From NCBI RefSeq assembly GCF_003952485.1, contig NZ_CP034447.1, forward strand, positions 7,020,501 to 7,084,500: a stretch of DNA of 64,000 nucleotides, read 5' to 3'. Source of the stretch: Mesorhizobium sp. M1E.F.Ca.ET.045.02.1.1 (lineage in GTDB: Bacteria; Pseudomonadota; Alphaproteobacteria; Rhizobiales; Rhizobiaceae). The notes beneath the pieces were generated by a model, which made no database searches, had not been told where the DNA came from, and saw nothing but the letters and a program-made list of their open reading frames with translations. Every line of letters begins with the position of its first letter. Positions within the stretch are counted from its first letter, which is position 1. A program made the position numbers and the translations under genes. Of this stretch, positions 18,320 through 23,258 are shown in pieces.

Positions 18320-18483
18320 TGATGGCGCGCTTCGCTGTGCCAACATCCATTGGCGATGAAGGCTTGTCAGCGACCGAAAAAGGGAATGCTCTAATGCATC
18401 CGGTCGGCGCTGGCAGGAGATGCGGTCCTTGGGGCCCATCGCGCCTGATGTGGAGGAAAGTTTTCAACATGGGAGGAAATCGA

Positions 18484-19416
18484 ATGCTTTCGAGGCTGAA
18501 ACTGCTCGTGCTTGGCTTGATCGCGGCACTCGCCATTCCGGCGATGGCCGAGGCCAAGACGTTCTACTGGATTTCGCATGGCGGCCCCGCCGATCCGGTC
18601 TGGACCTACTTCCTGGCCGGCGCCAAGCAATGGGCGAAAGACACCGGCAACACCGTGAACACCTCGTTCCACAATGGCGACGTCGCCTCGCAGCAGGAAG
18701 CTATCCGCGCCGCCATCTCGGCCAAGGCCGATGGCATCGCCACCACCAGCCCCGATCCGGGCAGCCTGATCGAACTGGCCAAGGAGGCGCGCGCGGCCAA
18801 CATCCCGATCATCAACTTCAACACGCCCGACCCGAAGGCGAACTTCAACGCCTATGTCGGCGGCGACAACACGACGTTCGGCAAGCATTGGGCGCAATAT
18901 CTGGTCGACAAGGGCCTGGTGAAGAAGGGCGACTTCGTCTGGATGCCCGTCGAAGTTCCCGGCGCCACCTATGGCGTGCAGGAAGAGGAAGGCATCAAGA
19001 GCGTGTTCGGGCCGCTCGGCATCACCTATGAGGTGACCGAAGCGACGCTCGACCAAGCCGAAGTGATCAACCGCATGGTCGACTACCTCACCGCCCACAA
19101 GGGCAAGGTGAAGGCGATTATCGGCCTCGGCGACCTCGTCACCGGCTCGATCAAACGCGTGTTCGACCAGGTCGGCGTCAAGCCGGGTGAGATTCCGGTC
19201 GTCGGCTGGGGCAACTCGCTCGACACCACCCAGGAAGTGCTCAACGGCTATGTCAACGCGGCGCAGTGGCAGGACCCGCAGGCGACCAGCTATGTCGCGC
19301 TGTCGCTTGCCGCGATGGCCTCTGCCGGCATTCCTCCGGGCTTCAACGTGATCACCGGCGCGCTCTATGAAAAGGACACCGCCGGCGTCTACGATAAGAT
19401 CCTGTCCGGCAAGTAA
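18484..19416 (+). CDS. sugar ABC transporter substrate-binding protein
   Basis: 310 residues. MLSRLKLLVLGLIAALAIPAMAEA is a Sec signal peptide; the mature region (FYWISHGGPADPVWTYFLAG ... GIATTSPDPGSLIELAKEA ... YVGGDNTTFGKHWAQYLVDK) is the periplasmic-binding type 4 (ribose-binding-like) fold. GGAGGAAATCG precedes ATG 18484; an ATG at 18469 would hide that site. Heads a FrcBCA-like set (binding protein, one permease, one-domain ATPase). The likely ligand is a pentose, hexose or sugar acid linked to the XylX-like enzyme upstream. Confidence 0.88.
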   Translation: MLSRLKLLVLGLIAALAIPAMAEAKTFYWISHGGPADPVWTYFLAGAKQWAKDTGNTVNTSFHNGDVASQQEAIRAAISAKADGIATTSPDPGSLIELAKEARAANIPIINFNTPDPKANFNAYVGGDNTTFGKHWAQYLVDKGLVKKGDFVWMPVEVPGATYGVQEEEGIKSVFGPLGITYEVTEATLDQAEVINRMVDYLTAHKGKVKAIIGLGDLVTGSIKRVFDQVGVKPGEIPVVGWGNSLDTTQEVLNGYVNAAQWQDPQATSYVALSLAAMASAGIPPGFNVITGALYEKDTAGVYDKILSGK

Positions 19417-21353: not shown

Positions 21354-22388
21354 ATGACTGGACCCATGAAAGCCACCGTAGCCGACATCGCCCGGAGCTG
21401 CGGCCTGTCGACCGCGACGGTCGACAGGGTGCTCAACAACCGTCCGGGCGCGAGTGCTGCCAACCGGCAGCGGGTGATGGAGGCGGCCAAGCAGCTCGGC
21501 TATCTGCCGACGCTCGACCAGGTCGTGCTGCCGTCGAAGCCGGCGCATCTGGAATTCTTCCTGCCGATCGGCAGCAACGCCTTCATGGCCGATCTCGCCC
21601 ATCACATCGAAGACTATGCCGCGCGCCTGCCGCTGGTCGCCTCCTGCCGCATCCACAATCTCGCGGGCATTTCGCCCGGCGCGCTGCAGGGCGCGGTCGA
21701 GAACCTCTCGCTCAAGGCCAACGGCGTCGGCGTCATCGCCGTAGACCATCCGCGCACGCGCAACATCCTGCGCGAGCTCGTCGAGGCGGGCATCCGGCTG
21801 GTTACCCTCGTCTCCGACGTGCCGGCTGCACCCCGCTCGGCCTATGTCGGCATCGACAATCGGGTCGCCGGGCGCACGGCGGCGCTCTTGATGGGGCGTT
21901 TTCTCGGCGGCAGGACCGGCCATCTGGCGATGGTGGTCGGCTCGCGCTCCTATCGCGGCCATGAAGAGCGCGAGATGGGCTTCCGCTCGGTGCTCAGCGA
22001 GGAGTTCTCCAATCTCACCATTTCAAGCGCGGTCGAGATCAATGACGAACCGGATGCCAGCTACCGCGCAACCGTGCAGGCGCTGCACAACGAGCCGGAA
22101 CTGCTCGGCATCTATTGCGTCGGCGCGGGGCACTCTGGCGTGGCAAAGGCTCTGCTTGAGGCCAAACCGCGCAAGAAGCCGATCTTCATCTGCCATGACC
22201 TGACGAAGGAAACGCGCCGGTACCTCGTCGACGACCTCGCCGACGTCGTCATCGACCAGAATGCGCGGCTGATCGCCGAGCAGTCGGTGATCCGCCTGCT
22301 CGGCTCGATCGCCTCATCGGCGCCGTACCTGACGAAGAAATTCATCGAGCCGCGACTGATCTTCAAGGAAAACGTGCCGGTTCAATGA
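21354..22388 (+). CDS. LacI-family transcriptional regulator
   Basis: 344 residues. The DNA-binding headpiece is ATVADIARSCGLSTATVDRVLNNRPGASAANRQRV, followed by a periplasmic-binding-like ligand domain (VIAVDHPRTRNILRELVEAG ... AYVGIDNRVAGRTAALLMGR). STATVDRVLN departs from the usual STVSRVLN and is the LacI subgroup found with sugar transporters in rhizobia. ATG at 21354 or 21366 are both possible. Located at the end of the XylX-transporter cluster and probably its regulator. Confidence 0.88.
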   Translation: MTGPMKATVADIARSCGLSTATVDRVLNNRPGASAANRQRVMEAAKQLGYLPTLDQVVLPSKPAHLEFFLPIGSNAFMADLAHHIEDYAARLPLVASCRIHNLAGISPGALQGAVENLSLKANGVGVIAVDHPRTRNILRELVEAGIRLVTLVSDVPAAPRSAYVGIDNRVAGRTAALLMGRFLGGRTGHLAMVVGSRSYRGHEEREMGFRSVLSEEFSNLTISSAVEINDEPDASYRATVQALHNEPELLGIYCVGAGHSGVAKALLEAKPRKKPIFICHDLTKETRRYLVDDLADVVIDQNARLIAEQSVIRLLGSIASSAPYLTKKFIEPRLIFKENVPVQ

Positions 22389-22483
22389 GTTAGCGCGCCC
22401 TGGCAAACGCGCATTGTCCGGATTTGTCGGAGGATTGGTCGGCGATGCGACAATTCTGCACACCAGCTATGCAACTTTCATGA

Positions 22484-22511
22484 TTGCCGAATCGTTGGGC
22501 AACGCTTATAC
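22484..22511 (+). promoter_or_regulatory. sigma-70-type promoter of the ar14-like sRNA
   Basis: TTGCCG (22484-22489) and TTATAC (22506-22511) are spaced by 16 bases. This places the first transcribed base near 22517-22519, immediately before the first sRNA hairpin. Confidence 0.6.
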
Positions 22512-22516
22512 ATTTT

Positions 22517-22638
22517 GGTGTCGGCCATCTCCTCCTCCCAGATGGATGCCGACGATGAATGCGGTGCACCTCCTCCCGCGCCGTATTCGAAATCGAAGCC
22601 CGCTGCCTCCTCCTCCTCCCGGCAGCGGGCTTTTCTTT
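22517..22638 (+). ncRNA. ar14-family-like small RNA with three anti-Shine-Dalgarno loops
   Basis: Three consecutive hairpins each display CCUCCUCCC in the loop: stem 22520-22530/22540-22553 with loop 22531-22539; stem 22558-22567/22578-22587 with loop motif 22569-22577; and the terminator stem 22598-22607/22621-22630 with motif 22612-22620. The ~120-nt length, three-hairpin layout and ultraconserved CCUCCUCCC motif match the alphaproteobacterial ar14 sRNAs (for example NfeR1 of Sinorhizobium) and recall the 'cuckoo' RNAs. These RNAs are thought to bind ribosome-binding sites of many mRNAs (often with Hfq) and to respond to stress or growth state. It occupies the gap between the LacI and TetR genes. 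Motif and fold are read directly; family membership is by recognition. Confidence 0.85.
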
Positions 22639-22639
22639 G
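22598..22639 (+). terminator. Rho-independent terminator of the sRNA
   Basis: GCCCGCTGCC (22598-22607) pairs perfectly with GGCAGCGGGC (22621-22630), followed by TTTTCTTTG. It ends the ar14-like RNA, and its loop supplies the third CCUCCUCCC motif. It faces the convergent TetR gene. Confidence 0.85.
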
Positions 22640-22673: not shown

Positions 22674-23258
22674 TCAGCGCGCCCTGAAGGACGCAATCAG
22701 GCTCTCGGCCATGCGCACGAACTGCGCGCTCGGTCCTTCGGCGCCGACGCTCTGCATCGAGACGCGCGCGCCTTCAAGCAGCAGCGACAGCGTGTCGGCG
22801 AGAAGCTCCGCCTGGCCAATCCCGGCATCACGGCAAAGCGCAACGAGCTTTTCGCGCTGGGCTTCCTTCAGTTCCTTGATGACGCGCCTTGCCGGGTGAT
22901 CGGTCTCGGTGAGCTCGACCGCCGCATTGGCCATGTCGCAGCCGCGGCTGTCGACGCTGAGCAGTTCCGAAGCCTTGCGGACCCAGGCGTGCAACTGGGC
23001 CAGCTTATCGCCCGGATGCTCGGCCTCGAACTCGTCCCATATCCTCGAGGCCTTCGCCGCCGTGGCGCGCAGGCATTCGATGACCAGTTCGTCCTTGGAT
23101 TCGAAGTGACGATAGAGCGTCATCTTGTTGGTGCCGGCAGCCTCGGTGATGGCGTCGACGCCAACGCCCTTGATGCCGTGCTTGTGGAACATGTCCTGCG
23201 CCGTCTCCAGGATCCGATCCCGGGGGCGAGAACGCTCCACGACGCCGTCTGTCATCAT
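22674..23258 (-). CDS. TetR-family regulator of the adjacent RND pump
   Basis: 194 residues with an N-terminal TetR HTH (RILETAQDMFHKHGIKGVGV ... EAAGTNKMTLYRHFESKDEL) and an all-helical ligand domain. It is transcribed away from the RND operon, and the 249-base divergent gap contains repeated GTTAC/GTAAC half-sites, the classic arrangement of a local efflux repressor. Inducer unknown. Confidence 0.9.
   Translation of the reverse strand: MMTDGVVERSRPRDRILETAQDMFHKHGIKGVGVDAITEAAGTNKMTLYRHFESKDELVIECLRATAAKASRIWDEFEAEHPGDKLAQLHAWVRKASELLSVDSRGCDMANAAVELTETDHPARRVIKELKEAQREKLVALCRDAGIGQAELLADTLSLLLEGARVSMQSVGAEGPSAQFVRMAESLIASFRAR

What the first reader, a model, noticed from the sequence alone, without database searches (positions are those of the whole stretch)
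22484..22639. ar14-like sRNA with three CCUCCUCCC loops between LacI and TetR genes
Three adjacent hairpins each present the anti-Shine-Dalgarno motif in the loop, behind a good promoter and ending in a terminator. This is the hallmark of alphaproteobacterial ar14/cuckoo RNAs. It would go unseen in protein-only annotation, and it lies next to a sugar operon regulator and an efflux repressor.
Basis: partly seen in the sequence, partly recalled or inferred. Interest (0 to 1): 0.7.

Follow-up and report, generated by a model that had tools for sequence, protein, structure and literature searches.

The report
Rhizobial ar14 small RNA beside LacI
A short regulatory RNA of a known rhizobial family (ar14), with three exposed loops that can block ribosome-binding sites, sits between a sugar-transport regulator gene and an efflux repressor gene; it is a real but ordinary family member, with a strikingly conserved promoter and a plausible target in the transport operon next door.

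Summary
Window 22516-22637 (+) matches Rfam ar14 (RF02344) end to end at 74.3 bits (gathering 58.8). Its three CCTCCTCCC motifs fall in three predicted hairpin loops; the third hairpin runs into TTTTCTTT. It folds far better than shuffles (z -6.6). The genome holds four ar14 genes over threshold and one shortened copy. This kind is found in 131 of 146 genus genomes, and in at least 120 of 146 it follows the same lacI. Plasmid relatives point to Mesorhizobium.

New here: between lacI and the RNA two dyads are almost invariant in 56 unique orthologues. The upstream one resembles the published LsrB site and lies like the one before one of the genome's two abcR RNAs; the other overlaps the -35. 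The first gene of the neighbouring ABC operon has the ribosome site GGGAGGA, complementary to the loops, in 30 of 30 orthologues examined.

Best reading: an NfeR1-type anti-Shine-Dalgarno RNA, probably LsrB-activated, repressing solute-binding-protein mRNAs. No expression data were available. Known family, new well-conserved locus.

The parts
22516..22637 (+). ar14 small RNA (about 122 nt)
   Evidence: Rfam RF02344, 74.3 bits, model 1-123 of 123; fold z -6.59
22531..22539 (+). anti-Shine-Dalgarno loop 1, CCTCCTCCC (ACTCCTCCC-type in half of the orthologues)
22569..22577 (+). anti-Shine-Dalgarno loop 2, CCTCCTCCC
   Evidence: invariant in 50 unique RNAs
22612..22620 (+). anti-Shine-Dalgarno loop 3, CCTCCTCCC, in the terminator-like hairpin
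22457..22473 (.). dyad 1, TGCACACCAGCTATGCA; inferred LsrB-type site (minus strand 22460-22472 fits GCAT-N3-TG-N3-T)
   Evidence: consensus from PMC8844928 passage
22484..22502 (.). dyad 2, TTGCCGAATCGTTGGGCAA, over the -35
   Evidence: TTGCC-N9-[GA]GCA in 56 of 56; only exact match in the genome
22484..22489 (+). -35-like hexamer TTGCCG
   Evidence: not found by the scan
22507..22512 (+). -10-like hexamer TATACA, 17 bp from the -35
   Evidence: not found by the scan
21354..22388 (+). LacI-family regulator gene
   Evidence: Pfam; colinear with the RNA in at least 120 of 146 genus genomes
18471..18477 (+). GGGAGGA ribosome site of the ABC binding-protein gene (start 18484 chosen by me), proposed target
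   Evidence: kept in 30 of 30 orthologues examined
18484..19416 (+). ABC solute-binding protein gene (Peripla_BP_4), proposed target

Best explanation
The locus encodes an ar14 (NfeR1-type) trans-acting small RNA. Shown: family membership, three hairpins with anti-Shine-Dalgarno loops, a terminator-like end, a conserved promoter region and genus-wide placement after lacI. Inferred: (1) it is transcribed from its own promoter, activated by the LysR-type regulator LsrB at dyad 1, with dyad 2 over the -35 as a second LsrB contact or a repressor site (NtrC is a candidate by analogy with NfeR1); (2) the open UCCUCCC loops pair with GGGAGGA-type ribosome sites and block translation, with solute-binding proteins among the targets; (3) one target is the first gene of the ABC operon about 4 kb upstream, so that LacI and the RNA would control one transporter at two levels. 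Step 3 is the least certain (about 0.3); the confidence given is for steps 1 and 2 together.
For: Rfam match and fold. Both-sided base-pair changes in hairpin 2 with an unchanged loop. All 56 unique lacI-linked RNAs keep three CUCCUCCC. Dyad 1 fits GCAT-N3-[AT]G-N3-T in 56 of 56 and the strict LsrB consensus in 37 of 56, and one of the two abcR promoters of this genome has the same two-dyad layout. In S. meliloti LsrB activates and NtrC represses nfeR1, and its three loops silence targets redundantly (PMC10746234 and PMC7143759 passages). Binding-protein SD GGGAGGA in 30 of 30 orthologues.
Against: No expression or binding data. Of six nfeR1 loci in S. meliloti only one was reliably detected by northern blot (PMC7143759), so a paralogue may be silent. 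The S. meliloti LsrB box is TGCA-N6-GCAT at -72 to -60; dyad 1 has TGCA-N6-CTAT and lies near -59 to -43. The exact form TGCA-N8-ATGCA was found in 0 of 30 ar14 promoters of other genera, and TGC-N11-GCA in 1 of 30 (controls 2 and 21 of 570 windows); the second abcR has no such site. LsrB itself was not looked for in this genome. Duplex energies do not single out the binding-protein start: the ATPase and ntrB starts reach similar values with loop 3. The 30 orthologues are the closest of 130, and an SD is expected to be kept anyway. ntrB, an NfeR1 target, has no GGGAGG site here.
Confidence: 0.6

Rival explanations
1. It is a 3' end of the lacI transcript: a terminator region from which at most a processed RNA is released, without a promoter of its own.
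For: It follows lacI in the same direction in at least 120 of 146 genus genomes; the other ar14 classes also follow a gene in the same direction; the sigma-70 scan found no promoter.
Against: Two near-invariant dyads and a -35/-10-like pair with fixed place stand directly before the RNA, while the rest of the gap varies. pMc1192 (L073) has a related promoter and RNA with no LacI hit in the fetched stretch.
Confidence: 0.12
2. It is a redundant or silent paralogue: an ar14 gene by structure that is hardly expressed, the work being done by another copy.
For: Four copies over threshold in the genome; only one of six nfeR1 loci in S. meliloti was reliably detected (PMC7143759); a shortened copy exists at 253491.
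Against: Promoter dyads, loops and hairpin 2 pairing are conserved across the genus, which a silent gene would not keep.
Confidence: 0.18
3. Dyad 2 is an operator of the adjacent LacI protein, so that the RNA answers to the sugar and not to LsrB or NtrC.
For: An imperfect palindrome over the -35, next to lacI, in 56 of 56 unique lacI-linked sequences.
Against: LacI would be expected to bind its own ABC operon too, but the motif's only other match in the genome at up to 2 mismatches is elsewhere. One abcR promoter has a loosely similar second dyad.
Confidence: 0.07
4. The match is a chance cluster of CT-rich motifs.
For: None found.
Confidence: 0.01

Closest known systems
NfeR1 / Smr14C2 (ar14 family) of Sinorhizobium meliloti
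   Same: Same Rfam family; three hairpins with CCUCCUCCC loops; anti-Shine-Dalgarno targeting reported for NfeR1 (PMC10746234, PMC7143759, PMC8844928 passages).
   Different: Promoter: NfeR1 has CTTAGAC-N17-CTATAT, an LsrB box at -72 to -60 and NtrC site at -116 to -101; here the dyads are closer to the start and one overlaps the -35. ntrB lacks a GGGAGG site here. Its genome place was not compared.
AbcR1/2 (ar15, RF02345)
   Same: Anti-Shine-Dalgarno loops and solute-binding-protein targets in S. meliloti; a two-dyad promoter before one of the two copies in this genome.
   Different: A separate Rfam family; reported to bind Hfq, unlike NfeR1.
CcsR1 (RF02791)
   Same: CCUCCUCCC loops; weak match to 22551-22638 (36.3 bits).
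   Different: Below its gathering score of 65.3; model of 83 positions against three hairpins here.
Cuckoo RNA family
   Same: Hairpins with variable stems and a conserved loop motif (2-4 hairpins, as described in PMC4504443, passage).
   Different: The defining paper is not held and its matchers were not run.

Membership tests
ar14 (RF02344) | Covariance-model score at or above the gathering score, full length | tested here: met
   74.3 against 58.8 bits, model 1-123 of 123
ar14 (RF02344) | Three hairpins with CCUCCUCCC in unpaired regions | tested here: met
   loop 1 only partly open in the ensemble
ar14 (RF02344) | Expressed as a discrete transcript of about 115-125 nt | not testable with these tools
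   no expression data
NfeR1-type regulation | LsrB site upstream of the promoter | tested here: inconclusive
   strict consensus GCAT-N3-TG-N3-T in the window and in 37 of 56 unique orthologues, relaxed in 56 of 56; S. meliloti box TGCA-N6-GCAT not matched exactly
NfeR1-type regulation | NtrC site TGC-N11-GCA | tested here: inconclusive
   both dyads fit, but the motif is loose (21 of 570 control windows) and the places differ from S. meliloti
NfeR1-type regulation | Silences ntrB through its ribosome site | tested here: inconclusive
   no GGGAGG at the ntrB start; duplex -8.9 to -15.5
CcsR1 (RF02791) | Score at or above the gathering score | tested here: not met
   36.3 against 65.3 bits
ar7 (RF02342) | Score at or above the gathering score | tested here: not met
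   29 against 60 bits

The most novel reading that the evidence does not exclude
In Mesorhizobium one ar14 paralogue has been fixed beside the lacI of an ABC transporter operon whose first mRNA it silences, under a compact AbcR-like switch with two dyads that both fit LsrB- and NtrC-like motifs, so that the transporter is set jointly by sugar (LacI), LsrB and nitrogen (NtrC): a small RNA inherited together with its target operon.
Probability: 0.2. Interest if true: 0.5.

Novelty: new member of a known kind. Interest (0 to 1): 0.3.

Why it matters
An ar14 RNA affects nodulation and nitrogen regulation in S. meliloti (PMC10746234, PMC7143759). Mesorhizobium keeps several ar14 copies, each class after a different gene and with its own upstream region, so why rhizobia carry so many near-identical anti-Shine-Dalgarno RNAs becomes testable copy by copy. 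This copy has a clear promoter footprint and a candidate target in its own neighbourhood.

Tried and rejected
Chance motif cluster: rejected. CcsR1, ar7, Pseudomon-1 and anti-hemB: below threshold. Recent mobile insertion of this copy: not supported, since lacI and RNA are colinear in at least 120 of 146 genus genomes, though related copies on plasmids lie in varied places. A conserved protein inside the RNA: not supported, hairpin 1 differs among orthologues by insertions and deletions that shift frame. LacI as binder of dyad 2: disfavoured. A second exact dyad-1 match elsewhere may be chance. ntrB as target: no clear ribosome-site match. TetR is not a fixed partner: only 21 genomes have one listed match running from lacI into tetR.

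Alignment A1 misregisters its first row, the window's RNA, in hairpin 3, so it was not used for pair counts; those come from a direct comparison of hairpin 2 arms.

Rows dropped: searches left out places without 130 bases upstream or 128 bases of RNA and merged identical sequences, giving 56 lacI-linked and 20 other entries (19 rows aligned, one locus name being used twice). The shortened copy was left out of the reference list; A1 used 50 of 68 listed. One search examined 30 loci, the closest of 130 genomes. Searches used 30 loci of 178 sites, of which 19 had an ORF of at least 50 aa. One search counted the listed rows, whose listing was cut.

Full report
What is there. Window 22516-22637 (+) matches Rfam ar14 (RF02344) end to end with 74.3 bits against a gathering score of 58.8; it is the only match at gathering threshold in the window. 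The three CCTCCTCCC motifs are at 22531, 22569 and 22612 and lie in the loops of three hairpins (MFE -56.7 kcal/mol, z -6.59). Loops 2 and 3 are open; loop 1 is partly paired in the ensemble. The third hairpin runs into TTTTCTTT. Upstream, TTGCCG and TATACA are 17 bp apart. The flanking genes are a LacI-family regulator (21354-22388, +) behind genes for an ABC binding protein, permease and ATPase, and a convergent TetR-family regulator (22674-23258, -) next to an AcrB-type RND gene.

Where it sits among relatives. The window lies in a one-contig genome of 7.35 Mb. Plasmid records with related DNA are 15 Mesorhizobium and 2 Phyllobacterium, so I take the genus to be Mesorhizobium (inference). 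Four ar14 genes are over threshold: a tandem pair just after a DUF1127 gene, one after a phasin gene, and this one after lacI. A further class with another upstream motif follows a MucR gene or lies in varied places on plasmids. At 253491 lies a shortened, sub-threshold relative of the present copy (27.2 bits): loop 1 reads ACTCCTCCC as in many orthologues, loop 2 is intact, and hairpin 3 is missing. With strict filters 28 of 41 mixed relatives (25 over cut-off) and 186 of 199 family genomes (184 over cut-off) hold ar14. The present kind is in 131 of 146 genus genomes; one colinear match from the lacI end through the RNA is listed for 120 of 146 (the listing was cut, so this is a minimum), and in 21 of these the match runs on into tetR. 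The ABC binding-protein gene is in 130 of 146.

Selection on the RNA. All of 56 unique lacI-linked sequences have three CUCCUCCC; 28 have three full nonamers and 28 have two. In 53 trimmed unique RNAs, 36 have all three motifs open and 17 have two, at a threshold of mean unpaired probability 0.8. In hairpin 2 of 50 unique RNAs, 531 of 550 pair cells are standard, with changes on both sides at several pairs (G-C and A-U at one, U-A and C-G at another) and no change in the loop nonamer. Hairpin 1 has two forms that differ by insertion or deletion, both presenting the motif. Relatedness was not corrected for.

Promoter. In the gap between lacI and the RNA two islands are as conserved as the RNA while much of the rest varies. 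Dyad 1, TGCACA-N3-GC[TC]ATGCA, is in 52 of 56; on the minus strand it fits GCAT-N3-[AT]G-N3-T in 56 of 56 and the published LsrB consensus GCAT-N3-TG-N3-T in 37 of 56 (consensus from a passage of PMC8844928). It spans about -59 to -43 from 22516. Among 30 ar14 promoters of other genera 5 have the relaxed consensus, starting at -57 to -54, against 14 of 570 control windows; but TGCA-N8-ATGCA is in 0 of 30 and TGC-N11-GCA in 1 of 30. Dyad 2, TTGCC-N9-[GA]GCA, is in 56 of 56, overlaps the -35, and has one exact match in the genome, a second at 2 mismatches, and none for the reversed control. One of the two abcR (ar15) genes of this genome has TGC-N11-GCA dyads at -62 and -38; the other has none; the phasin-linked ar14 has one TGC-N11-GCA, at -60. 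In S. meliloti LsrB activates abcR1 and nfeR1, and NtrC represses nfeR1. I infer LsrB control; NtrC is possible but its motif is too loose to decide. Two Phyllobacterium plasmid copies (62.9 and 59.2 bits) have a recognisable dyad 1 (read by eye).

Targets. The loops are complementary to GGGAGGA. The ABC binding-protein gene has GGGAGGA six bases before ATG 18484, a start that I chose for this site and the signal-peptide-like sequence; the site is in 30 of 30 orthologues examined, the closest ones. Permease, ATPase and lacI starts show no such site. GGGAGGA-N4-9-ATG occurs 178 times in the genome against 14 for the reversed pattern; one of the 178 is the shortened ar14 copy read backwards. Of 19 ORFs of at least 50 aa from the first 30 sites, 3 are solute-binding proteins (SBP_bac_5, DctP, Peripla_BP_4); enrichment was not tested. 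The two targets named as validated for NfeR1 in PMC8844928 are periplasmic binding proteins (passage). Duplex energies are -14.7 to -15.6 for the binding-protein start with each loop, but the ATPase and ntrB starts reach -15.0 and -15.5 with the third, so energies alone single out no target. ntrB has no GGGAGG site here.

Literature. Seen: passages of PMC3927594, PMC5596092, PMC7143759, PMC4504443, PMC8844928 and PMC10746234, the last also with its abstract and one section. Two cited papers on the cuckoo family and on alpha-proteobacterial sRNA families were not held. Other papers were seen only as listings (one search listed none). None of these listings showed a paper on this lacI-linked copy that I could recognise; that is not proof of absence.

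Verdict. This is a new, well-conserved member of a known small-RNA family, with an inferred LsrB-type promoter and a plausible, unproven target in its own neighbourhood.

Noticed in passing
G000:C1:253491-253570 (L005, L149): A shortened relative of this RNA that keeps two hairpins; the 3' arm of hairpin 2 now runs into a T-rich stretch, so it might be a two-hairpin RNA with its own terminator or a relic.
   Followed up: partly
L147 (2436-2716, -): Two tandem ar14 genes directly after a small DUF1127 gene.
   Followed up: partly
L148 (2521-2635, +): An ar14 gene 3' of a phasin gene.
   Followed up: no
L075, L118, L135: ar14 copies 3' of a MucR-type gene (Pfam tested for L075 only), with a TTTGTGC[AG]TTGCAATAT element upstream of the RNA.
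   Followed up: partly
G000:C1:4502733-4502749 (L231): A second exact match to the dyad-1 pattern, upstream of an ORF that reads like an efflux membrane-fusion protein (by eye, untested); may be chance.
   Followed up: partly
L200 (upstream of 1501): One of the genome's two abcR (ar15) RNAs has a two-dyad promoter with a GCAT-N3-TG-N3-T site at -61.
   Followed up: partly
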